Below are positions 9,621 to 21,574 of a stretch of DNA of 64,000 bases, one piece after another. Origin of the DNA: Prosthecobacter debontii (GTDB lineage Bacteria > Verrucomicrobiota > Verrucomicrobiia > Verrucomicrobiales > Verrucomicrobiaceae); assembly GCF_900167535.1 (NCBI RefSeq), contig NZ_FUYE01000011.1, positions 122,820 to 186,819 of the forward strand, in the 5' to 3' direction. Position 1 is the first letter of the stretch; each line of letters begins with the position of its first letter. The notes under the pieces are model-generated. The model was not told the DNA's origin. It searched no databases and was given only the letters and a program-made list of their open reading frames with translations. The translations under genes and the position numbers were made by a program.

Positions 9621-10493
9621 TTAGAGGTCACTGCGTGACTCCGTGGGTGAGCGTCCACTCCAGGCTTTGAAGGCCCGTGAAAAGTGAGCGGCGCTTTTGT
9701 AACCCAATTCACTCGCGACCGCTTTCACTTGGGCATCCGGTTGGCGCAGTTTGATGGCGGCTTGGGAGAGCTTCAGCCTCGTTAGACAAGCAAGCGGCGT
9801 CTCATCGTCGTAGCGTTTGAACAAGCGCGTCAGATAGGCTGCTGAGACATGGCAATGCCGCGCGGCTTCTTCGATGTTGCCAAGCACCGGGTAGTTCCTC
9901 AGGATGTGCCCACGGCAGCGCAGATAAGTCGCATAAGCCGGGTCGAGTTTCGTGGTGGCTGGCTGACGGCTGTCGGCACACAGGACCAAGGCATGCTCCA
10001 GAGCAGCACTGGCAGCACGGAGGCCTAGACGCCCACCACGAAGCGCATGATCAATGACTTCCTCCAGCAGGCTGATGACACGGCTGGCATCCAGCACACG
10101 GATGAGAACCCCAGACGTGAGACCCAGTTCCCCCAACAAGGCGGAGGCGCGGGAGCCGGTGAAGTTGAAAAAATACTTCACCATCGGCTCACCGTAGTCC
10201 GACTGGATCACATGCGGCGTCGCCGGATCAAAGAAGAAGGCATGCCCCGCCGACAGCTCATGCTTCTTCCCCGCCAAGGTCACCTGACCTTTGCCACGAG
10301 CCACGAACTCGAAGGCGATGAAAGGAAACGTCGTGCGACTGATCACAAAGTCCGGCGCACACCACTCGCACCCACCCGCCACCAGTGCGATGCCGCCACT
10401 CTCCCCACGCTTGCTTTTCGGTTCCATCACAAAAAAGCGCCGCGTGCGCAGCACCTGCTGGGAGAAGTAATCAGCTGTGTCGGAGACTTTCAT
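9621..10493 (-). CDS. AraC-family transcriptional regulator
   Basis: Protein of 290 aa from ATG 10493. The N-terminal half is a cupin-like sensor domain (FVARGKGQVTLAGKKHEL, FFDPATPHVIQ). The C-terminal 100 residues contain two helix-turn-helix units: IEEAARHCHVSAAYLTRLFK and VKAVASELGYKSAAHFSRAFK, the latter being the AraC signature. The ligand is unknown. Its start is only 22 bp after the stop of the ROCO GTPase gene on the same strand, so it could be transcribed from the DGR operon, or it could control the downstream dehydrogenase genes. Confidence 0.92.
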   Translation of the reverse strand: MKVSDTADYFSQQVLRTRRFFVMEPKSKRGESGGIALVAGGCEWCAPDFVISRTTFPFIAFEFVARGKGQVTLAGKKHELSAGHAFFFDPATPHVIQSDYGEPMVKYFFNFTGSRASALLGELGLTSGVLIRVLDASRVISLLEEVIDHALRGGRLGLRAASAALEHALVLCADSRQPATTKLDPAYATYLRCRGHILRNYPVLGNIEEAARHCHVSAAYLTRLFKRYDDETPLACLTRLKLSQAAIKLRQPDAQVKAVASELGYKSAAHFSRAFKAWSGRSPTESRSDL

Positions 10494-10515
10494 AACATGG
10501 AGTTCGTTACCCAAA

Positions 10516-13500
10516 TCAAACCTTGCGTCCAAACTGCTGCCACTTTGGATGCACACGATACCAGCGCGATTCCTCGAGCACAGGCTTTAGCCCTCCCCAT
10601 TCGGAGTCATGCTTCACAAATAGCTCGCGCATGGTGTGAATAAACTTGGCATCCTGCTCTTTGGGGAGACCATAACCGGCCACACCTAGCTTGGAAAAGA
10701 TTCCGGCCTCTACATCGGCTTCGTCCGCTTGTTTCAGGTAAGCACGTAGCTCCTTGTTGGTGTCGTCTTGGAGCGCCTTTTCGAAGTCGGCCTGAGTTTT
10801 CGACCATTCGTCCACCTTGGGCTTCCACTCAGCGGGTAAGACATACTCACCAGCAGCCAGCCCACCCGTCTTCCACGCCAGCAGCGCGAACTTCGTGAAC
10901 TGCATCGCCCTCTTCGCATGTTTCACCCACTCTCGACCCACCTTCACCCGCAGCGTGCCACGCCCGTCTTTACCATACTTCTCCCCGAAGAACGGCACCG
11001 GGGCCAGAGACCACTCGCACCAGATGGTGATGTCCACCTCCGTCTCCATCAGGCCCGTTTTCCACCACTCTTTCTCTACCGGCAGGATGCTGAAAAGCCG
11101 TGGCCGATCGTCCTCGCGGTTGGAGAAGGCATTCATCCAGTCTTTTGCATGAGCACGGGCTTCATCGCGGATCGTCGTCACCACCTCGGCGATGTGGTCC
11201 AACTTGCCTGATACGGTCCGTTGCCAGTCCGTGCCGCCTTCTGCCATCTGCTCAATGAGAGTGGTGATCCGTGAGTCAAGTAGGGTGACCTGCTGAGTCG
11301 CACATTCGGCGAACAGGGCCTCTAGCTTCACGGGTTTATTGCATGAGGCACAATTGACTGCGGGGAAGCCCTCTTTCAGGTTCTCGTGGCAAGCGTCCTC
11401 AGAAATGCGGCCCTGACCATTCATCATGTCGTGTCGCGGTTGGCGGCAGGCGGTGCTGCAACTGAGGTAGCGGGTCTTTTTCAATCCATTCCAGCATTCG
11501 TCCGTGTCTGCGCCGATCTGGTGGTCGATCAGGTCAAAGAGGCTGTCGTTGCGCAGGTAACGCAGCTTGATGTGCAGCTCGCGCTCCTTCAGCTCAATGC
11601 GGGCCATGCTATGGTTCTTGTCGCTCACGACCAGCCCGTGTTGCCAGTGAATGGCTTCATCGGGGTTGGTGTGCCCCAGGCTGAGGGAGCGCAGGCGGAA
11701 GATCAGCAGGTAAATGAGCTCCGGCACCTCGCCCGGCTGCAGGCTGCCAGATTGATCGGCAAAGAGGATCGTGCGGCGTGACTCGCGATAGTTCTGGGGT
11801 GTTTCCACAGGCCACACCTCATCCAGCCGTGTAGGCGGCAGCTCCTGCACCATCTGCGTCATCAGCAGCAGATCACCCTCGCCGTGTTTCTGGCCGGGCC
11901 GCTTCGGGCGGTAGGCCAGTTCGTTGATTTCCATGAGCTGGAGCAGCATGTTATGGGTCTCTGCGGGGAATGGCTGTGCCCCATCGCGGGCCTTTGCCAG
12001 CCACAGCTTCTTCAGGTGGTCCAGTCGGATCACGCCATGCGCCTTGCGGGCGGGTTCATCGTCCAGTACACGGGCCACCGCCCGATTCAGCCATTCCGGT
12101 TTCAGAACCACCACGCCTTTCCCTGCCGGAGTATCCTCCCGCCACAGCCAAGTGCCGATGAGATGCCCCGTGCGAATGAAAATTTCCTGGGCGTCTCCAT
12201 CCCTGATGCCATGCTTATCGCAGATGCCCCGCACCTCGTCACAGCTCAGGTATTGCTCCGCGTGTCCTTGGAGAGCCTGAAACACGCCCGCCCATCCAGG
12301 CTGCCACCGTTGGGCATAAGGACCTTTTTTATCGCTTACGATCCCCGCCAGCTCTCGCCGCAATTTCGGGATGCCCGTGCCTTTCACGCTGTCCACCACA
12401 TGCAGCCCGTGGAAGGTAAGTTGGGGAAACTCGCGCTGGAGGTCCTCCAGCTTCAGGGATGCATCCTGCCGTCCGCGCGTGCAGATCACCAGCACGCGGG
12501 CGTTCCCCTGCGTGCGGCGTTGTACCAGCTCCAGCCAACGATGCAGGCCGCGGTCTGCGTCATCCTTCCCCCGTGGGATCATGACCGCCAGATAAATGGC
12601 TTGCGGAGAGAAAAGCATCTGGTGCATGTGCCGGTAATCATGCTGCCCGCCCATGTCCCAGATGTGAAAGTCCAGACCGTCCCGCCCCGGCTCCACATGC
12701 GCGTCGGCGTCCAGTTGCGCCAGCACCCGCCCGTTTTTGTCCAAGCGGAGAAGCGAACGGTTCATGCCCTCGGTGCTCTCGCTAAAGGTATCTCCGTCTT
12801 TCCCCACCTTCTCAGTGACCTGTAACCCACGCAGAGCCTTTTGCAGGCAAGTCTTCCCATGCCCCTTGTCTCCGATGAGGATAAGCTTCGCGGCATAGAA
12901 GGTGATGGTCGGAGCCGCCTCGAGGCCGTCACAGGCATGACGTTCTCGATGCTGTGCCAGCATCTCGCGAGTGATCGCAGAATCCGTCATCCGCAGGTGT
13001 TTCTTCAGGGAGGGCCACGCTTTCTGCTTCCAGGCAGACCGCTGATCAGGGATCAGTTGACTGTCCTCCAGGGCCACATGCTCCAGCGCATCCAGCAGGC
13101 CCATGGAAAGGGGCAGCTCACCTAGCGGATTGGCCGTCAGGTCCAGTTCCACCAGCCGATCCAGCAGGCCGATGGCGAAGGGCAGGGAGATCACCCGGTT
13201 GTCCCGGAGGTACAGCCTCTCCAGCCGATGAAGCCACTCCACTCCTCCCACACTTGCCAGCCGGTTAAAATTCAGCCCCAGCCAGCGCAGTTGGGTGAAC
13301 CGGCTCAGGCCACGTGGCAGCTCTGTCAGCTCATTCCCGGTCAGGTCGAGAAATTCGAGCTGCGTGAGCTGGGCAAACTCGGGGACCGCGTCCAGATCCG
13401 CCGTGCGCAGCCCCAGCTCCGCGAGGTTGAGGTGGTTCCGCCGTTTCCGGTGGCAGAAATGGATGCGCTTTTGGGCTTCAGTCAGGTTCGGGATGCTCAT
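10516..13500 (-). CDS. LRR-Roc-COR (ROCO) GTPase, last gene of the DGR operon
   Basis: Protein of 994 aa. Residues ~22-150 are five to six leucine-rich repeats (LTQLEFLDLTGNELTELP-type). Next is a Roc GTPase domain with P-loop GDKGHGKT (about 210-217) and DMGGQ (about 282-286); the NKxD motif is degenerate (CTRGRQD). A COR-like region follows to about residue 680, then a cysteine-rich stretch (SCSTAC ... CASCNKP, about 690-735) that could bind zinc, and a 250-residue C-terminal region I do not recognise. Roc-COR proteins are dimeric GTPase switches. No signal peptide or membrane helix is seen. Its ATG overlaps the RT stop by 4 bases (ATGA), so it is translationally coupled to the retroelement. 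That link is the main reason to think it works with the diversified protein. Confidence 0.9.
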   Translation of the reverse strand: MSIPNLTEAQKRIHFCHRKRRNHLNLAELGLRTADLDAVPEFAQLTQLEFLDLTGNELTELPRGLSRFTQLRWLGLNFNRLASVGGVEWLHRLERLYLRDNRVISLPFAIGLLDRLVELDLTANPLGELPLSMGLLDALEHVALEDSQLIPDQRSAWKQKAWPSLKKHLRMTDSAITREMLAQHRERHACDGLEAAPTITFYAAKLILIGDKGHGKTCLQKALRGLQVTEKVGKDGDTFSESTEGMNRSLLRLDKNGRVLAQLDADAHVEPGRDGLDFHIWDMGGQHDYRHMHQMLFSPQAIYLAVMIPRGKDDADRGLHRWLELVQRRTQGNARVLVICTRGRQDASLKLEDLQREFPQLTFHGLHVVDSVKGTGIPKLRRELAGIVSDKKGPYAQRWQPGWAGVFQALQGHAEQYLSCDEVRGICDKHGIRDGDAQEIFIRTGHLIGTWLWREDTPAGKGVVVLKPEWLNRAVARVLDDEPARKAHGVIRLDHLKKLWLAKARDGAQPFPAETHNMLLQLMEINELAYRPKRPGQKHGEGDLLLMTQMVQELPPTRLDEVWPVETPQNYRESRRTILFADQSGSLQPGEVPELIYLLIFRLRSLSLGHTNPDEAIHWQHGLVVSDKNHSMARIELKERELHIKLRYLRNDSLFDLIDHQIGADTDECWNGLKKTRYLSCSTACRQPRHDMMNGQGRISEDACHENLKEGFPAVNCASCNKPVKLEALFAECATQQVTLLDSRITTLIEQMAEGGTDWQRTVSGKLDHIAEVVTTIRDEARAHAKDWMNAFSNREDDRPRLFSILPVEKEWWKTGLMETEVDITIWCEWSLAPVPFFGEKYGKDGRGTLRVKVGREWVKHAKRAMQFTKFALLAWKTGGLAAGEYVLPAEWKPKVDEWSKTQADFEKALQDDTNKELRAYLKQADEADVEAGIFSKLGVAGYGLPKEQDAKFIHTMRELFVKHDSEWGGLKPVLEESRWYRVHPKWQQFGRKV

Positions 13501-14783
13501 GACGGTGTGGCTTGAGAAAATGTCCCCGCCGCCCGTGCTGGCCCGGTGCGCTGCACCCTGGGGCTACGGACCGGCGGCGGGGTGCTTTGGGTTTCGTCCA
13601 CAGCAAACGGCTGTGGAGCTGGACAGCAGGCCGGTTCCATCCAGGCGCTCCGGGCTCCGGCTGGAGCTGGGGGAGACACGCAGGCCGATGTTCTCGTTGC
13701 GGTTCTGCGGCTCGTTCCTGTTGCGGATGCTGGCAGCGGCGTTCCTGCCGTTGTTGTTCCAGGAGCCGCCGCGCAGGACGCGCTTGTCGCCCGTGGCCCG
13801 CCGCCCAAAGTCATGATCACTCGCCGCCGCCAGCTCACGCAGTCGGCACGCTGAGTGAAGGCTGTCAGCGCCACGGCGCGTTCCTGGGCCGTGGCTTCAC
13901 TGATCTCCTCATCATTCATGAGATCCTGCAACCGGTGCTGGTAGCGCCTGCGGCTGGCATGGTTCAGCCCCAGCCGATGGGGGAAGACCCGGTGACCCAG
14001 GAAGTCCATCCCGTGCTGACTGCGGTTGATGAAGGCCGTCTTCATTTCCAGTCCCAGCTCATGCTGCGCAAAGGCCACCAGGCTCTCCCGGGCGTACTTG
14101 GCAGCGGCGGCATCTGCCACCCACAGCGCCATGTCATCCATGTAGCGCACGTAGCCAAGTGGGCGCAGGTCCTGCACCGCTTTCACATCCAGCGTGGCGA
14201 GGTAAAAATTCGCCAAATGCTGGGAGATGAGCGTGCCGATGGGCAGGCCCCGGCCCGGCTGGGGTGCATAGGCCGCCAGCAGCAGACGGAAAGTGTCCAA
14301 TACCTGCCTCTCCCGGAACACGCGCGCCAGCCGCGCCATGAGCCGCCCATGGTCAATGCTCTGGAAATACTTCCGCACATCCAGCTTCACAAACCACGTC
14401 CCTTTCCTTGCTGCGGCCTGGGCAGCCTCCAGCGCGGCATAGGTTCCCTTTCCTACACGGCAGGCATAGCTGTGGTGGATGAGCCGCCGCTCCAGCACCG
14501 GGCCGCACACCCGCATGATGGCGTGATGCAGCACCCGCTCACGAAAGACCGGTGCGGTGATCAGGCGCTCCTTCGGATCATGAATGGTAAAGGTGTGGCA
14601 CTCCCCGCAGTGCAACTCACCGGAGGTGAGCTGGCTTTGCAGCGCGTCCAGCTCGACACTCAGATTTGCTAGGAAAGTCCGTACGGCAGGCTGCTGCCGC
14701 CGCCCCTTGGCTGCCAGCCACACAGCAGCGGTCAGGTTCTCTCGCGTCACCATCGCCTGCATGAGACCGCCGACACTTCTCAT
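13497..14783 (-). CDS. Diversity-generating retroelement reverse transcriptase
   Basis: Protein of 428 aa as an open frame. Residues 1 to about 325 are a group-II-like reverse transcriptase: KLDVRKYFQSID (first catalytic Asp about 135), the IGTLISQ motif (about 182-188) that marks DGR enzymes in place of the usual QGxxxSP, and YMDD (about 214-217). The ORF then continues through the template repeat, which encodes residues 334-372 in a different frame from the target protein, and ends in a Pro-rich tail. DGR reverse transcriptases copy the template RNA with errors at adenines and the cDNA replaces the variable repeat. The start overlaps the HRDC gene stop by 4 bases, and the stop overlaps the ROCO start by 4 bases. 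The tail after residue 325 may have no function of its own. Confidence 0.95.
   Translation of the reverse strand: MRSVGGLMQAMVTRENLTAAVWLAAKGRRQQPAVRTFLANLSVELDALQSQLTSGELHCGECHTFTIHDPKERLITAPVFRERVLHHAIMRVCGPVLERRLIHHSYACRVGKGTYAALEAAQAAARKGTWFVKLDVRKYFQSIDHGRLMARLARVFRERQVLDTFRLLLAAYAPQPGRGLPIGTLISQHLANFYLATLDVKAVQDLRPLGYVRYMDDMALWVADAAAAKYARESLVAFAQHELGLEMKTAFINRSQHGMDFLGHRVFPHRLGLNHASRRRYQHRLQDLMNDEEISEATAQERAVALTAFTQRADCVSWRRRVIMTLGGGPRATSASCAAAPGTTTAGTPLPASATGTSRRTATRTSACVSPPAPAGARSAWMEPACCPAPQPFAVDETQSTPPPVRSPRVQRTGPARAAGTFSQATPS
13597..13617 (-). other. Hairpin downstream of the DGR template repeat
   Basis: TCCACAGC (13597-13604) and GCTGTGGA (13610-13617) form a perfect 8-bp stem with a 5-nt loop, 49 bp past the 3' end of the template repeat in the coding direction. 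It would lie in the template RNA and could be part of the structure recognised by the RT or accessory protein. This role is inferred. Confidence 0.5.
13667..13782 (-). repeat. DGR template repeat (TR)
   Basis: A 116-bp repeat inside the 3' end of the RT ORF. It aligns without gaps to 15334-15449 (offset 1667). On the coding strand it has 27 adenines; 16 are changed in the variable copy, and none of the 89 non-adenine positions differ. In the target frame it reads RVLRGGSWNNNGRNAAA and so on, rich in AAC codons, the usual DGR design because AAC changes can reach many residues without making stops. Its 3' end carries the GC-rich block GGCCTGCGTGTCTCCCCCAG shared with the variable copy; the two then diverge (GCTCCAGCC versus TTCCATCC), as expected for IMH* versus IMH. 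Confidence 0.97.
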
Positions 14784-15232
14784 GAAGGTTTGGTCCCTCC
14801 CTTCAGCACTTCCAGAACCTCGGCACCGTACTTCGCCACGCGGGCCTCTCCCACGCCGCTGATGGCCCGCAGCTCCGCCGTGCTCTGGCAGCCGCGCTGC
14901 ACGATCTCCGCCAGTTGCGCATTGCTGAACACGGCGAAGACCGGTGTTCCCTCCCTTTCAGCGATGGTCTTCCTCAACGTACGCAGCCGGGCGAAGAGCT
15001 CAAACTGCTCCGGCGGCAGTGTCTCCTTGTAGTCCACCTTGTCGCTAGCCGGGCTGCAAGTGCTGCTGTTCCCTGGCCCGTCCACATACTCCACGCTGAA
15101 TGCCCACGCCCCCTCTTTCTCATGCCACTGCTGCGTCACCCGCAGCACGCGGTGGCTGCGGAGAAAGGCATTCAGTTCCGCTGCCACGTCCGGGCGGGCT
15201 GCGGCGGGGATGCTGAAGAAGGCAAAGGGCAT
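14780..15232 (-). CDS. HRDC-domain DGR accessory protein
   Basis: Protein of 150 aa from ATG 15232; the open frame upstream only reads through the variable repeat in a wrong frame. Residues ~1-50 form a short domain (FFSIPAAARPDVAAELNAFL, then an RVTQQWHEKEGAWAFSVEYVD segment). Residues ~73-145 are an HRDC fold: LFARLRTLRKTIAEREGTP, VFSNAQLAEIV, ISGVGEARVAKYG. HRDC domains bind nucleic acid in RecQ and RNase D, and small HRDC proteins of this type are a known alternative to Avd as DGR accessory factors. No Avd-like gene is seen here. The stop overlaps the RT start (ATGA). Likely role: bind template RNA or cDNA with the RT. Confidence 0.9.
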   Translation of the reverse strand: MPFAFFSIPAAARPDVAAELNAFLRSHRVLRVTQQWHEKEGAWAFSVEYVDGPGNSSTCSPASDKVDYKETLPPEQFELFARLRTLRKTIAEREGTPVFAVFSNAQLAEIVQRGCQSTAELRAISGVGEARVAKYGAEVLEVLKGGTKPS

Positions 15233-15281
15233 GGAATCAGGCTTGAGAAAAAATTTCGGCTGCTGCGCAGAGTGGATCGCT

Positions 15282-16049
15282 TCACTCGTACCTCGTTGCG
15301 CTCTTTTGGCCTCCGGCCCTGAACTGGATGGAACTGGGGGAGACACGCAGGCCGAAGGACTCGTGGCGGTCCAGCGGCACGTCCCTGTAGCGGAAGCCGG
15401 CAGCGGCGTACCAGCCGTCGTCGTCCCAGGAGCCGCCGCGCAGGACGCGGGAGTCGCTCCCTTGAGCGTAACGTTCAGCACACCACTCCCAGAGCTGGCC
15501 GTGCATGTCATGCAGGCCCCAGTCATTCGACGGGAGGCAGCCCACGGGAAGGGTCTTCTGACGGTAGAGCCATTTAAACCAACCCCTGCCTTCGCCTGCT
15601 GGATGATTCCCGTTAAAATTCGCCAACTGACTATTCAGGCTGTGCCCAGAGCCGATGCCGAAATCCATGTCCCGCCCCGCCCGGCAGGCACGCTCCCACT
15701 GCGCCTCTGCTGGCAGCCAGAGTTCATAGCCTGCGGGCATCACGTCCCGTGATTTCTGGGCGAACTCGCCCGCATCGTGCCAGGAGACGTGATCCACTGG
15801 CTGCTGCGGGCTTTCGTTGAAGCCGCTCCGGTTTCGCAGCCCCAGTGCCACCCACTGCGCCTGGGTGACGAGGTACTTCCCCAGCCAGAAGCCGGGCAGC
15901 TTTTGCTCCGGCGCAGGCGGGCACCAGCAGAAGACCATGCGGGTCTCCTGCCGGGGTTCCTCGGGCGTCAGGTCAAGGTAACACTCATCCCCCGCGTCTT
16001 CACCAATGAGGTCGGGGCGATACTTCGGCAGATCGGTCGTGGGGCTCAT
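15282..16049 (-). CDS. DGR target: FGE-sulfatase/C-type-lectin-fold variable protein
   Basis: Protein of 255 aa made almost wholly of an FGE-sulfatase (SUMF1-like, C-type-lectin fold) domain: LGKYLVTQAQWVAL, PVDHVSWHDAGEF, LPAEAQWERACRAG, NDWGLHDMHGQLWEWC, RVLRGGSW. Residues 201-239 are encoded by the variable repeat. Compared with the template, 15 codons differ, giving D, W, Y, G, F, V, L, H and S at sites that are mostly Asn in the template. It lacks the catalytic cysteines of true formylglycine-generating enzymes, as other DGR targets do, so it should act in binding. There is no signal peptide or lipobox: it appears cytoplasmic. It is first in the operon, 49 bp before the HRDC gene. Confidence 0.95.
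   Translation of the reverse strand: MSPTTDLPKYRPDLIGEDAGDECYLDLTPEEPRQETRMVFCWCPPAPEQKLPGFWLGKYLVTQAQWVALGLRNRSGFNESPQQPVDHVSWHDAGEFAQKSRDVMPAGYELWLPAEAQWERACRAGRDMDFGIGSGHSLNSQLANFNGNHPAGEGRGWFKWLYRQKTLPVGCLPSNDWGLHDMHGQLWEWCAERYAQGSDSRVLRGGSWDDDGWYAAAGFRYRDVPLDRHESFGLRVSPSSIQFRAGGQKSATRYE
15334..15449 (-). repeat. DGR variable repeat (VR)
   Basis: A 116-bp copy of the template at 13667-13782, near the 3' end of the FGE-fold gene. All 16 mismatches are at template adenines (coding strand). The first 33 bp (coding direction) carry no change; the variable zone then runs to the invariant GC-rich block at the 3' end, the initiation-of-mutagenic-homology site (IMH). Sixteen codons and the stop follow the VR. 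Confidence 0.97.
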
Positions 16050-18345: not shown

Positions 18346-19494
18346 ATGACGAAGTTCCTTCTCAGTGCCTCGTGGATGGCCCTTGCCTCAGTGGCTCTAG
18401 CCGACACGAAGCTCGAAATCTTGAAGCTAGACACGTCGGCGTCCGAGCTGCCTACGGTCAGCCCAGCCACACGTGAGAATGTGATCATCTACAAAGAACC
18501 AGGCCGTTATGGCGGCTGGCCTGCCAACCATGGCCTGTGGCAATGGGGGGACGAACTGGTCGTCGGTTTCACCTCCACGTGGTATAAATCAACGACAACA
18601 GACCATCGGATTGATCGCACCAAGCCTTCCTATGAGATCCAGGCGCGCAGTCTGGATGGAGGTAAGACGTGGAAGACCGAAGAGGATGTGCCTTTTGCAG
18701 ATCGTAAAAAAGAAGTGAAAGCAACCGCCCTGAAGGAGCCCCTGGACTTCACAGCTCCAGACTCGGCTCTCATGTTCTGCTTCGGCGGATTGCATAGGGG
18801 GCCGTCGTGGTTCTACACAAGCCTGGACCGCTGCAAGACTTGGCGTGGGCCTTATGCTTTTGAGGTGGAGGGGGTCGAGGGCATTTGCACTCGCACGGAT
18901 CTCATCGTTCTTGGACCCCGTGACTGTTTGATGTTTGGCAGCTGCGGTAAAAAGAACGATGGCAAGGAAGGCCATGTCTTCTGCGCACGCACCACCGATG
19001 GTGGTCTGACATGGACGTTCGTGTCTTACATTGGAGAAGAACCTCAGCCCGGCGGTTTTGCCATCATGCCGAGCACGGTGCGGACTCCAGCAGGAACGCT
19101 GCTGACGACCATCCGCATGGGCAAACCGAGCGCGAGTATTGAGCTTTGGCGCAGTGATGACCTCGGTCAAAACTGGACTCATGTGAGTGCGGTCACCGGG
19201 AACATCGGAGGCAATCCTCCCGCGACGGTATTGCTCCCCGATGGTCGCCTGTGCGTGACCTATGGTTACCGTCGGAAACCGACCGGTATGCGAGCACGCA
19301 TCAGTGCGGACGAAGGCAAAACCTGGTTGCCCGAAATCGTCATTCGTGACGATGGCTTCGATGGTGATCTGGGTTATCCACGCGCTCTGGTTCGACCCGA
19401 TGGCGAGATCTTCAATGTGTATTATTACAATGGCCCACGCGAAGAGGATCGCGCGATCGAAGGCACGTTCTGGACTCCTCCGCAGCCTCATTAA
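18346..19494 (+). CDS. Secreted BNR-repeat sialidase-like protein
   Basis: Protein of 382 aa with a signal peptide ending ALA-D at about residue 20. Asp-box motifs are SLDGGKTWK, SLDRCKTWR, TTDGGLTWT, SDDLGQNWT and SADEGKTWL. It belongs to the sialidase/neuraminidase propeller superfamily but is distinct from its neighbour (different spacing and an extra GGxPxTVLLPDGRL segment). The substrate is unknown. It sits 73 bp after the previous sialidase and 16 bp before the FGE-sialidase fusion, so the three are likely cotranscribed. Confidence 0.85.
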   Translation: MTKFLLSASWMALASVALADTKLEILKLDTSASELPTVSPATRENVIIYKEPGRYGGWPANHGLWQWGDELVVGFTSTWYKSTTTDHRIDRTKPSYEIQARSLDGGKTWKTEEDVPFADRKKEVKATALKEPLDFTAPDSALMFCFGGLHRGPSWFYTSLDRCKTWRGPYAFEVEGVEGICTRTDLIVLGPRDCLMFGSCGKKNDGKEGHVFCARTTDGGLTWTFVSYIGEEPQPGGFAIMPSTVRTPAGTLLTTIRMGKPSASIELWRSDDLGQNWTHVSAVTGNIGGNPPATVLLPDGRLCVTYGYRRKPTGMRARISADEGKTWLPEIVIRDDGFDGDLGYPRALVRPDGEIFNVYYYNGPREEDRAIEGTFWTPPQPH

Positions 19495-19510
19495 ATCACC
19501 CTTTAAAACC

Positions 19511-21574
19511 ATGCGAGTTTTGACTCTTCGTCTGTCCTGGATTGGGATGCTCTTCGGAGTGGTCTCATGGGCATGCTCTCTCTCCGCAGCTGATGATTTC
19601 GTCAATTCCCTGGGCATGCGCTTGGTGCCGATTCAGCCCGGCACATTTGTCATGGGCCAAGATGGGCCGCAGACGGATCATCAGATGCTGAAGCATCCCG
19701 AGAAGTTCGATGATGCCGACTCCGATGAAAAACCCGCGCATCAGGTCACTTTAACACAAAGCTTTCACATGAGTGTGACGGAGGTCACAGTGGCTCAGTA
19801 TCGTCAGTTCAAGCCTGAGCATCTGAAAGGGAAGGGCTATGACGAGGATGCCGTGACGCAGGTGAGTTGGCAGGACGCGATGGCCTTCTGTGAATGGTTA
19901 TCGGAAAAAGAAAAACGCCCCTACCGTCTGCCGACGGAAGCTGAGTGGGAGTATGCTTGCAGGGCTGGCACGAAGACCCTGTTTCATACGGGAGATACCT
20001 TACCCGCCAGCTTCCAGAAATGGGGATCGGACATCGGGTTTCGGGATCGATATTTCCCAGGGAAAACACTGCCAGCGGAATATCGCACTGAGGTGCCGAA
20101 CCAAGAAATGCTGAAGGTCGGGCTCACGGCAGCGAATCTATGGGGCTTGCAAGACATGCATGGCAACGTGGCCGAGTGGTGCGCGGATTGGTTTGGGCCT
20201 TATGCTGCTGCGGCTCAAACCAACCCGTTAGGAGCTCAAGACGGGGACTTCAAAGTGTTCCGTGGCGGCCATCACTCCATCTTCACACGTGTCATCCGTT
20301 CCGCCAATCGCGGAGCTTGGTTGCCAGAGGCTCGGAGTGATCGCATCGGTTTCCGAGTCGTCGCGGGTGCGTTGCCCAAAGGGGCCTACGCCACTCCGGC
20401 AGAGGTGCCTTTGTATGCTCGGGATGTGTCTCAGAGCCTCGCTAAGATCGCTGCTGTTTCGGAAACCGAGCCTTTCTTCGAAGGCCCCAAACCCTATGTC
20501 AAAATCCCGGAGCCGTCTTATGGACCGGTGTTCTTCCGGCACAATCACAGCCCCTCCATCACGGAATGCCCAAATGGAGATCTGCTGGCCGTGTGGTATT
20601 CCTGCGCCAATGAGGATGGCGCGGAGTTAAGCAATGTCGCCAGTCGCTTGCGCCGTGGTCAAACCGAGTGGGAGCCTGCTTCCGTATTTTGGGATGGCGT
20701 GGATATCAATGATCACGGTCCCAAGGTCTGGTGGGATGGCGAACAAACGATGTATCATTTCGCACGCGGTTTGAGAGAGAACATTGTCCGCACTTCGACA
20801 GACAATGGGGCCACGTGGTCCAAGGCGCTTTCCATTCAGCCACCCGGGGAATTTGGCAATCAGGTGATCCGACTGACCGATGGCACGCTGGTGATCTCTC
20901 ATGACGTGCGTCAGGTCAGCTTGGTTTACAGCCAAGATGGTGGCAAGAGCTGGAGCTTCAATGATGTGGCCAAACGCGAGAGTGATTTTCGACCTGGAGG
21001 CCAAGGCTTTCGTTATCCCGGCATTCATGCGCCCATCGTGCAGCTCAAAGATGGCCGGATCATGGCGGTGAGCCGGAATGACCCCGAAGAAGATCAGGCG
21101 AAGTTTGGCTTCAAGACACCGGTCAGCTTCACGGCGGATCTGGGGAAAACCTGGATGTATGATGTGACACCTTTTCCCGCCATCAGCAGTGTGCAGCGTG
21201 CGGCAATGATCCGCCTTCAGGACGGAGCAATTCTGTTGTGCAGCTTCACGGATCAATGGCGCGACTGGAAGAACCGTAAAGGCATGTCTTTCAAGCAGGC
21301 AGGTGGTGGCGAGTTCACGGGATTTGGCCTCTTTGCCGCGTTGTCGTATGATGAAGGCAAGACTTGGGCGGTTCAGCGTCTGATCACACCTGGAGGGGCA
21401 GCGCGGCAGGTGAACGCGATTGATCGCGTGCAGTTCACTTTGAGCGACACGATGGCCGAACCTTGCGGCTACCTCGCAATGACTCAGAGCCGTGACGGCA
21501 AGATCCAACTCATCACCAGCAAGAATCATTACGCGTTCAATTTGGCTTGGCTGAAATCCCTGCCTAACCGATGA
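19511..21574 (+). CDS. FGE-sulfatase domain fused to sialidase domain, secreted
   Basis: Protein of 687 aa from ATG 19511, which opens a signal peptide (LRLSWIGMLFGVVSWACSLSA); the ORF extends upstream into the previous gene. Residues ~30-290 are an FGE/SUMF1-like domain (GMRLVPIQPGTFVMGQDG, VTEVTVAQYRQF, RLPTEAEWEYACRAGT, NLWGLQDMHGNVAEWC, VFRGGHHS, DRIGFRVV). The conserved cysteine after RGG in true FGEs is missing. The rest is a sialidase propeller with STDNGATWS, SQDGGKSWS and SYDEGKTWA boxes. The first part probably binds a ligand or scaffolds. It is not a DGR target: no AAC-rich tail matching the template is present. Confidence 0.88.
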   Translation: MRVLTLRLSWIGMLFGVVSWACSLSAADDFVNSLGMRLVPIQPGTFVMGQDGPQTDHQMLKHPEKFDDADSDEKPAHQVTLTQSFHMSVTEVTVAQYRQFKPEHLKGKGYDEDAVTQVSWQDAMAFCEWLSEKEKRPYRLPTEAEWEYACRAGTKTLFHTGDTLPASFQKWGSDIGFRDRYFPGKTLPAEYRTEVPNQEMLKVGLTAANLWGLQDMHGNVAEWCADWFGPYAAAAQTNPLGAQDGDFKVFRGGHHSIFTRVIRSANRGAWLPEARSDRIGFRVVAGALPKGAYATPAEVPLYARDVSQSLAKIAAVSETEPFFEGPKPYVKIPEPSYGPVFFRHNHSPSITECPNGDLLAVWYSCANEDGAELSNVASRLRRGQTEWEPASVFWDGVDINDHGPKVWWDGEQTMYHFARGLRENIVRTSTDNGATWSKALSIQPPGEFGNQVIRLTDGTLVISHDVRQVSLVYSQDGGKSWSFNDVAKRESDFRPGGQGFRYPGIHAPIVQLKDGRIMAVSRNDPEEDQAKFGFKTPVSFTADLGKTWMYDVTPFPAISSVQRAAMIRLQDGAILLCSFTDQWRDWKNRKGMSFKQAGGGEFTGFGLFAALSYDEGKTWAVQRLITPGGAARQVNAIDRVQFTLSDTMAEPCGYLAMTQSRDGKIQLITSKNHYAFNLAWLKSLPNR

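What the first reader, a model, noticed from the sequence alone, without database searches (positions are those of the whole stretch)
10516..16049. A diversity-generating retroelement coupled to an LRR-Roc-COR GTPase in one operon
Four minus-strand genes lie head to tail: FGE-fold target, HRDC accessory, DGR reverse transcriptase with template repeat, and a 994-aa ROCO GTPase. The last three are joined by ATGA overlaps (14780-14783 and 13497-13500). No product has a visible signal peptide or membrane helix, so the diversified protein seems to act inside the cell. DGR-diversified FGE/lectin-fold proteins have been linked to NTPase-based conflict and signalling systems in other bacteria; the pairing with a Roc-COR switch by translational coupling is, as far as I know, not a standard arrangement. 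Inference: the variable FGE protein senses a ligand and the ROCO protein acts as an NLR-like switch.
Basis: partly seen in the sequence, partly recalled or inferred. Interest (0 to 1): 0.93.

Follow-up and report, generated by a model that had tools for sequence, protein, structure and literature searches.

The report
Self-mutating sensor paired with GTPase switch
A bacterial gene cluster joins a retroelement predicted to keep rewriting the tip of one protein to a large switch protein of the LRRK2 family, and seven genomes keep the genes for that protein and the switch side by side even where the retroelement is partly or wholly missing, so the pair likely works as a custom-fitted sensor and its alarm.

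Summary
Window 10516-16049 (minus strand) carries an FGE-fold gene with a variable repeat, an HRDC accessory, a DGR reverse transcriptase whose ORF contains the template repeat, and an LRR-Roc-COR (ROCO) gene. Both ATGA overlaps exist; 18 of 21 TR/VR mismatches are at template adenines. An 89%-identical FGE keeps 6 of 21 adenine-coded residues against 224 of 234 others. The "operon" reading needs correction. Of 34 other loci with HRDC and RT, none has a ROCO. But the seven ROCO orthologues with upstream sequence, window included, all have the FGE gene upstream on the same strand. Only the window has an intact RT there: one keeps HRDC plus an RT stub, three an HRDC stub, two neither. So the unit is FGE+ROCO, and the DGR is a removable mutator. 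One locus keeps FGE+LRR but has SIR2 instead of Roc-COR. A second locus (L226) has three template-matched FGE-like ORFs beside another LRR-Roc-COR gene. Best reading: a hypermutable intracellular sensor feeding a Roc-COR switch, probably defensive; binding, ligand and output are untested. Hypermutated FGE joined to NTPases, AP-GTPase included, was already predicted in print: a new variant of a known kind.

The parts
15282..16049 (-). FGE-fold target protein, 255 aa, no strongly hydrophobic segment
   Evidence: PF03781 E 7e-28; top solved relative by E-value is T. denticola variable protein 1 (TvpA, 2y3c), by profile E 1e-26 and by fold E 9e-12 (PvdO has a slightly higher TM-score)
15326..15457 (-). 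variable repeat (VR), codons 198-242 of the FGE gene; 21 residues coded by TR adenines
   Evidence: 84% identical to TR, 18 of 21 mismatches at TR A; residue count; 6/21 vs 224/234 identity to P0139
14780..15232 (-). HRDC accessory protein, 150 aa
   Evidence: PF00570 E 3e-19; a relative lies in the same locus as the RT in 34 other loci
13497..14783 (-). DGR reverse transcriptase ORF, 428 aa; RT domain about 14783-13812, remainder is TR and spacer read in frame
   Evidence: PF00078 E 2e-13; IGTLISQ and YMDD motifs read in the sequence; open tail in all 16 rows of A2
13659..13790 (-). template repeat (TR), inside the RT ORF
   Evidence: only TR and VR match strongly in the genome
14780..14783 (-). 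ATGA overlap, HRDC stop / RT start
   Evidence: L076 also reads ATGA at the end of its HRDC gene
13497..13500 (-). ATGA overlap, RT-ORF stop / ROCO start
   Evidence: L264 has the same ATGA between its HRDC stub and ROCO
10516..13500 (-). ROCO protein, 994 aa: LRR, Roc GTPase, COR-A, COR-B, C-terminal module
   Evidence: Pfam; full ROCO in the PDB list: Rab family protein 6hlu, E 9e-54
13051..13449 (-). LRR region of ROCO (residues 18-150), the part that stays with FGE when the back end changes
   Evidence: 73% identical in L081 while COR is 23%; 54% in L082, which lacks Roc
12478..12888 (-). Roc GTPase domain (residues 205-341)
   Evidence: PF08477 E 1.4e-12; GDKGHGKT and WDMGGQ motifs read in the sequence
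11314..12294 (-). COR-A and COR-B (residues 403-729)
   Evidence: PF16095 E 2e-21, PF25497 E 1e-5
10516..11283 (-). C-terminal module (about residues 740-994), unknown; conserved cysteines C681, C685, C717, C720 lie just before it
   Evidence: no Pfam family above cut-off, no PDB sequence, model pLDDT 64 with no fold match; cysteines

Best explanation
The FGE-fold protein and the LRR-Roc-COR protein are likely a two-protein recognition switch inside the cell, in which the retroelement is predicted to keep rewriting the binding face of the FGE protein and the ROCO protein would turn binding into a GTPase-controlled response. Predicted steps: (1) RT with HRDC copies TR RNA with errors at adenines, and the copy replaces VR, changing up to 21 residues on the C-type-lectin-like face; (2) the FGE protein docks on the LRR end of ROCO; (3) ligand binding shifts the Roc-COR state; (4) the C-terminal module gives the output, most likely a defence or cell-suicide response. 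Shown here: the gene unit, the A-specific TR/VR pattern, differences between near relatives concentrated at the adenine-coded sites, the recurring FGE-ROCO pairing, and a DGR that is broken or missing in six of seven loci. Inferred: docking, ligand, switching, output, and that a lineage without the DGR lives with a frozen sensor.
For: FGE upstream of ROCO, same strand, in 7 of 7 orthologues with upstream sequence (window, L076, L077, L078, L079, L081, L264). Of 41 six-frame ORFs from window 1-30000, the ones matching these loci are the four genes, ORFs antisense to them, one more ORF (19262-21574) that hits the FGE genes, and ORF 28017-29468 in L079 alone. Seven more distant ROCO loci with context have no FGE hit (L053, L054, L055, L074, L075, L265, L266). 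DGR decay: L076 keeps HRDC (73%) and about 70 RT codons, then lacks the stretch matching window 14572-13641, TR included; L078, L079 and L264 keep only HRDC residues 1-36, 1-42 and 1-53; L077 and L081 keep neither gene. The DGR-RT profile finds no RT domain in the genomes of L079, L081 and L264. Diversification: P0139, p=2e-13; L081 differs from the window TR at 19 of 31 A sites against 17 of 101 others, p=4e-6. FGE identity follows LRR identity (Spearman 0.65, p=0.03, n=11) but not COR identity (-0.03, n=10) (4 of the 11 pairings rest on contig length). SIR2 in place of Roc-COR in L082. Second DGR+FGE+ROCO locus, L226, with three VRs. Some sister DGR loci carry caspase, TIR, nSTAND1 or AAA partners. 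Equal contig lengths suggest intact RT+ROCO in three further metagenomic lineages (18401, 39038, 5511).
Against: No contact between the proteins was tested. FGE and the LRR-coding end are physical neighbours, so their matching identities could be plain linkage. Among loci whose DNA I could read only the window holds an intact RT next to this ROCO. PADLOC has no model hit for FGE or ROCO. The C-terminal module resembles no known effector. In 10 of 16 DGR loci viewed I picked out no conflict-type partner.
Confidence: 0.6

Rival explanations
1. FGE and ROCO work together but not in defence: the variable protein would recognise kin, surfaces or nutrients and the ROCO switch would steer growth or development.
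For: No PADLOC hit for FGE or ROCO; ROCO functions in bacteria are poorly known (recalled). A diversified ligand-binder suits any changing target.
Against: All four products look cytoplasmic by hydrophobicity; some sister DGR loci carry caspase, TIR, nSTAND1 or AAA genes; the front end sits beside SIR2 in L082.
Confidence: 0.25
2. ROCO regulates the DGR, for example by tying translation or RT activity to cell state, and is not the partner of the FGE protein.
For: The RT ORF and ROCO share an ATGA junction, and both lie downstream of HRDC.
Against: FGE and ROCO stay together where RT and TR are gone: L076, L077, L078, L079, L081, L264.
Confidence: 0.06
3. ROCO is an unrelated neighbour that happens to follow a DGR.
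For: 0 of 34 other loci with HRDC and RT have a ROCO (18 of the 34 hold at least 4.5 kb beyond the RT).
Against: 7 of 7 ROCO orthologues sit behind the FGE gene, in loci that otherwise share almost no genes with the window.
Confidence: 0.04

Closest known systems
DGR-diversified STAND-NTPase and MoxR ternary conflict systems of multicellular bacteria (Dore et al. 2024, PMC10907252; abstract and section 11 part 1 read)
   Same: DGR-varied FGE/C-type-lectin sensor linked to an NTPase switch, proposed antigen sensing
   Different: There the NTPase is STAND/NACHT (in the target protein itself) or MoxR; here it is an LRR-Roc-COR GTPase in a separate gene, with an HRDC accessory. The paper's main text has no hit for Roc, COR, LRR, leucine-rich, HRDC or GTPase.
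FGS-NTPase and AP-GTPase counter-invader systems (PMC8195603; section 15 read, section 7 passages)
   Same: Names AP-GTPase (Roc) as one NTPase joined to FGS domains, says FGS genes are often DGR-associated, and proposes hypermutating receptor analogues; describes LRR-AP-GTPase-COR proteins with variable C-terminal domains, FGS among them
   Different: Described as domain fusions, with a four-helical DGR accessory; no separate FGE + LRR-Roc-COR gene pair with TR/VR and HRDC, and no series of DGR loss, in the passages seen
Treponema denticola DGR with TvpA (PMC4891356; passages; TvpA also in a passage of PMC7159879)
   Same: FGE-fold target, HRDC accessory overlapping the RT; TvpA is the top solved relative of the window FGE by E-value
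   Different: Targets there are predicted lipoproteins; no ROCO partner in the passages seen
Chlorobium tepidum ROCO (entries 3dpu and 6hlu, 'Rab family protein'; organism from a reference title and from recall)
   Same: LRR-Roc-COR architecture, found by profile
   Different: No DGR or FGE partner is known to me for it (recalled)

Membership tests
Diversity-generating retroelement | TR/VR pair with changes confined to template adenines | tested here: met
   18 of 21 mismatches at A; the three others lie near the repeat ends
Diversity-generating retroelement | DGR-type RT (YMDD; [IVL]GxxxSQ in place of QGxxxSP; motif rule recalled) | tested here: met
   VRYMDD and IGTLISQ read in the RT
Diversity-generating retroelement | accessory protein (Avd, HRDC or MSL) | tested here: met
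   HRDC E 3e-19; HRDC and MSL named as DGR accessories in PMC10053308 (passage)
Diversity-generating retroelement | active mutagenic retrohoming | not testable with these tools
   only indirect: differences between near relatives concentrated at adenine-coded sites
ROCO (Roc-COR) protein | Roc GTPase followed in tandem by COR | tested here: met
   Roc 205-341 and COR-A 403-534 above cut-off, COR-B 600-729 just below cut-off
STAND/NACHT antiphage NTPase | STAND NTPase domain | tested here: not met
   no STAND or NACHT family among Pfam hits
MoxR-vWA ternary conflict system | MoxR ATPase with vWA partner | tested here: not met
   neither among Pfam hits of the four products and the next gene, 9621-10556; farther genes not scanned
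Formylglycine-generating enzyme | catalytic cysteine pair (C336/C341 of the human enzyme) | tested here: inconclusive
   the VR translation has no Cys; that the pair falls in this segment is recalled, not aligned here
Known defence system in PADLOC | match to a curated model | tested here: not met
   0 hits for FGE and ROCO; RT matches many RT models and HRDC matches DpdF models

The most novel reading that the evidence does not exclude
A bacterial counterpart of receptor maturation and germline fixation: a DGR mutates an FGE receptor that plugs into the LRR of an LRRK2-like GTPase, lineages then delete RT and TR and inherit the chosen receptor as a fixed innate sensor, and the FGE+LRR front end is passed between different alarms (Roc-COR variants, SIR2).
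Probability: 0.35. Interest if true: 0.9.

Novelty: new variant of a known kind. Interest (0 to 1): 0.68.

Why it matters
It gives a defined two-gene receptor (FGE + LRR-Roc-COR) that can be studied with and without its own mutator, so the open question of what DGR-varied proteins do in cells becomes testable: the same receptor exists next to an intact DGR, next to a deleted DGR, and with another output domain. It would also give Roc-COR GTPases, the LRRK2 class, a natural input signal in bacteria.

Tried and rejected
ROCO as a standard part of FGE-HRDC-RT loci: rejected, 0 of 34. ROCO as a mobile or viral gene: no match in the plasmid collection and no confirmed relative in viral contigs. The long HRDC ORF: rejected, its first part reads the FGE gene in another frame. 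RT relatives above 50% identity among fetched loci: none apart from the window and the L076 stub; the many weaker RT hits were not classified. ROCO C-terminal effector by fold: model pLDDT 64, best Foldseek E 1.2, dropped. A trans-acting template for the decayed loci: the L076 genome has another DGR (L244), but the L076 FGE end has no match there better than E 0.97, so that contig holds no fitting template (its other RT contigs were not tested). No TR/VR pair in L076, L077, L078, L079, L081, L082 or L264. RT tree: the RTs thought to have a ROCO (window, P0020, P0028, P0034) fall in one clade, L226 was set as root; support values were not printed, so I use it only as a sketch.
Full report
What is there. 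Four minus-strand genes lie head to tail at 16049-10516. Pfam gives FGE-sulfatase (E 7e-28), HRDC (3e-19), RVT_1 (2e-13), and LRR + Roc (1e-12) + COR-A (2e-21) + COR-B (1e-5, just below its cut-off). A 132-nt repeat pair links the RT ORF (TR 13790-13659) with the 3' end of the FGE gene (VR 15457-15326): 84% identity, 21 mismatches, 18 at template adenines although A is only 31 of 132 template bases. This is a diversity-generating retroelement. The junction sequences confirm both ATGA overlaps. TR and VR are the only strong genomic matches to the template (the next best has E 0.5). The template codes 21 FGE residues through adenines at codon positions 1 or 2.

Is the diversification real? The metagenomic FGE P0139 is identical to the window FGE at 224 of 234 residues outside the adenine-coded set and at only 6 of 21 inside it (Fisher p=2e-13). 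I compared 16 of the 120 listed FGE hits: 15 are less alike at the adenine-coded sites (p from 2e-13 to 0.04) and one, P0157, is not (p=0.36). These include proteins from loci without a DGR, so part of the effect may be that these sites tolerate change. By E-value the closest solved protein, by profile and by fold, is TvpA of T. denticola, itself from a DGR system (FGE model pLDDT 82).

Does ROCO belong to it? Two surveys give different answers, and both matter. Seen from the RT: of 118 fetched loci (18, 80 viral contigs, 20) 117 give an RT hit, 34 also have an HRDC relative, and none of the 34 has a ROCO hit at E 1e-6. Five of the 34 are viral contigs, some near-identical; 18 of the 34 hold at least 4.5 kb beyond the RT. 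So FGE-HRDC-RT is common without ROCO. Seen from the ROCO: I searched one genome per species by pattern (18 loci), 142 relatives, 387 phylum genomes, 7 genomes of the family of the L079 genome and 245 genomes of the order of the L078 genome. Orthologues with upstream sequence are the window, L076, L077, L078, L079, L081 and L264. All 7 have an FGE homologue upstream on the same strand. Dropped before this count: L080 (319 nt upstream only), L083 (contig starts inside the gene), L082 (LRR only, treated below), ten weak partial matches L084-L093 (no FGE hit), and hits whose context I did not fetch. Seven more distant ROCO loci with context have no FGE hit (L053, L054, L055, L074, L075, L265, L266).

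A decay series. Between FGE and ROCO the window has HRDC + RT + TR. L076 has HRDC (73% identical) and about 70 codons of RT by DNA alignment (to residue 85 by tblastn); its DNA then resumes about 20 nt beyond the TR equivalent, so roughly 930 nt matching window 14572-13641 are missing. L078, L079 and L264 keep HRDC residues 1-36, 1-42 and 1-53. In L264 that stub ORF ends ATGA on the ROCO start, as the RT ORF does in the window. L077 and L081 keep neither gene (57- and 80-nt gaps). No TR/VR pair was found in any of the six. The DGR-RT profile finds nothing in the L081 genome, and in the genomes of L079 and L264 only the repeat-like end of their own FGE genes. In the L077 genome it finds one weak RT hit (E 1.7e-27) and two short matches to the repeat part. 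The L076, L078 and L082 genomes have other RTs: of the four loci fetched, L244, L246 and L249 have another FGE gene and L245 has none by tblastn. The L081 FGE still differs from the window template mainly at adenine sites (19 of 31 against 17 of 101, p=4e-6), as expected if it was once diversified; relaxed constraint at the same sites would look alike. Loss from a four-gene ancestor is my reading of the stubs; independent gain is not excluded for L077 and L081, which have no stub.

How old is the four-gene unit? I could not fetch the metagenomic contigs. But 'longest contig' values coincide: ROCO P0005 and RT P0020 (18401); ROCO P0015, RT P0028 and FGE P0189 (39038); ROCO P0014 and RT P0034 (5511); FGE and ROCO without a listed RT on 279078, 2345000 and 13373 (120 of 1482 RT hits and 120 of 327 FGE hits were listed). 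By this inference intact RT+ROCO occurs in lineages whose ROCO back half is only about a third identical to the window's. Against that, seven contig lengths show RT and FGE but no ROCO among the 18 ROCO hits (81400, 98704, 528916, 95926, 6229, 6466, 8253); that ROCO search scored only residues 540-994 and a capped set.

Modularity. In L081 the FGE (69% outside VR) and the LRR (73%) are close to the window, while Roc is 35%, COR 23% and the C-terminus 28%. Over 11 loci FGE identity tracks LRR identity (Spearman 0.65, p=0.03) but not COR (-0.03, 10 loci); 4 of these FGE-ROCO pairings rest on contig length. In L082 the FGE is followed by an LRR protein (54% in the LRR) without Roc and then a SIR2-domain ORF (E 1e-16); L083 has a similar LRR beside an ORF with weak matches to SIR2 defence models. 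I infer that the LRR is the docking end for FGE. Plain linkage of FGE with the LRR-coding end is the alternative.

A second case. L226 (same class as the window, RT 39% identical) has one TR, three FGE-like ORFs each with a VR (89, 75 and 73% of mismatches at A), the RT, and on the same strand next to the last FGE-like ORF an 859-aa LRR-Roc-COR protein (Roc E 6e-12; COR-A E 1e-7, 32.2 bits against a cut-off of 35.3). I listed the neighbours of 16 DGR loci, picked nine genes of six loci by eye and scanned them: AAA gene with a caspase-family gene (L035), AAA gene with TIR (L044), caspase-FGE (L037), nSTAND1-WD40-FGE (L223), kinase-FGE (L221), WD40-FGE (L040). The other ten showed no such partner by eye and were not scanned. 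The company in those six and the SIR2 locus are why I favour defence.

What is known. Passages of PMC8195603 say FGS domains are joined to STAND, KAP or AP-GTPase (Roc) NTPases, are often associated with DGR parts, and may be analogues of hypermutating immune receptors; its section 15 describes LRR-AP-GTPase-COR proteins with variable C-terminal domains including FGS. PMC10907252 describes DGR-varied FGE sensors with STAND and MoxR systems (section 11 part 1) and its main text has no hit for Roc, COR, LRR, HRDC or GTPase. PMC8144416 has none for GTPase, leucine or HRDC. Searches for DGR+Roco, DGR+leucine-rich repeat+GTPase, Roco+anti-phage and Roc-COR+defense system listed no paper whose listing or passages that I saw describe a DGR-ROCO operon; only open-licence papers are held and supplements were not readable. 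HRDC as a DGR accessory is known.

Verdict. A real, recurrent sensor-switch gene pair with a removable mutator: a new variant of the predicted FGS-NTPase systems. The pairing and the broken or missing DGRs are shown; docking, ligand, switching and defence are not.

Noticed in passing
L082:459-5492; L083:22-2369: FGE gene, then an LRR protein like the ROCO front end but without Roc, then a SIR2-domain ORF; in L083 the LRR protein and an ORF with weak matches to SIR2 defence models (contig starts inside the LRR gene).
   Followed up: partly
L226:4523-11989: A separate DGR with three FGE-like targets and an LRR-Roc-COR gene on the same strand; the TR again lies inside the RT ORF.
   Followed up: partly
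L253:8434-10673: TIR-FGE fusion followed by an HRDC stub that matches only residues 1-36, like the stubs in L078 and L079; suggests HRDC-RT loss also at a TIR-FGE locus.
   Followed up: no
window 13497-13812 and alignment A2: The RT reading frame stays open through TR and spacer in all 16 rows I aligned; P0020 and P0021 extend it with repeats. Whether the tail is made or needed is unknown.
   Followed up: no
L073:5396-5650: A lone 87-residue match (51%) to the ROCO C-terminus in a genome whose DGR lies on another contig; perhaps a ROCO remnant.
   Followed up: no
window 19262-21574: A 770-aa plus-strand ORF that matches the FGE genes of the related loci (27-36%), outside the DGR; no template match there.
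   Followed up: no
   Followed up: no
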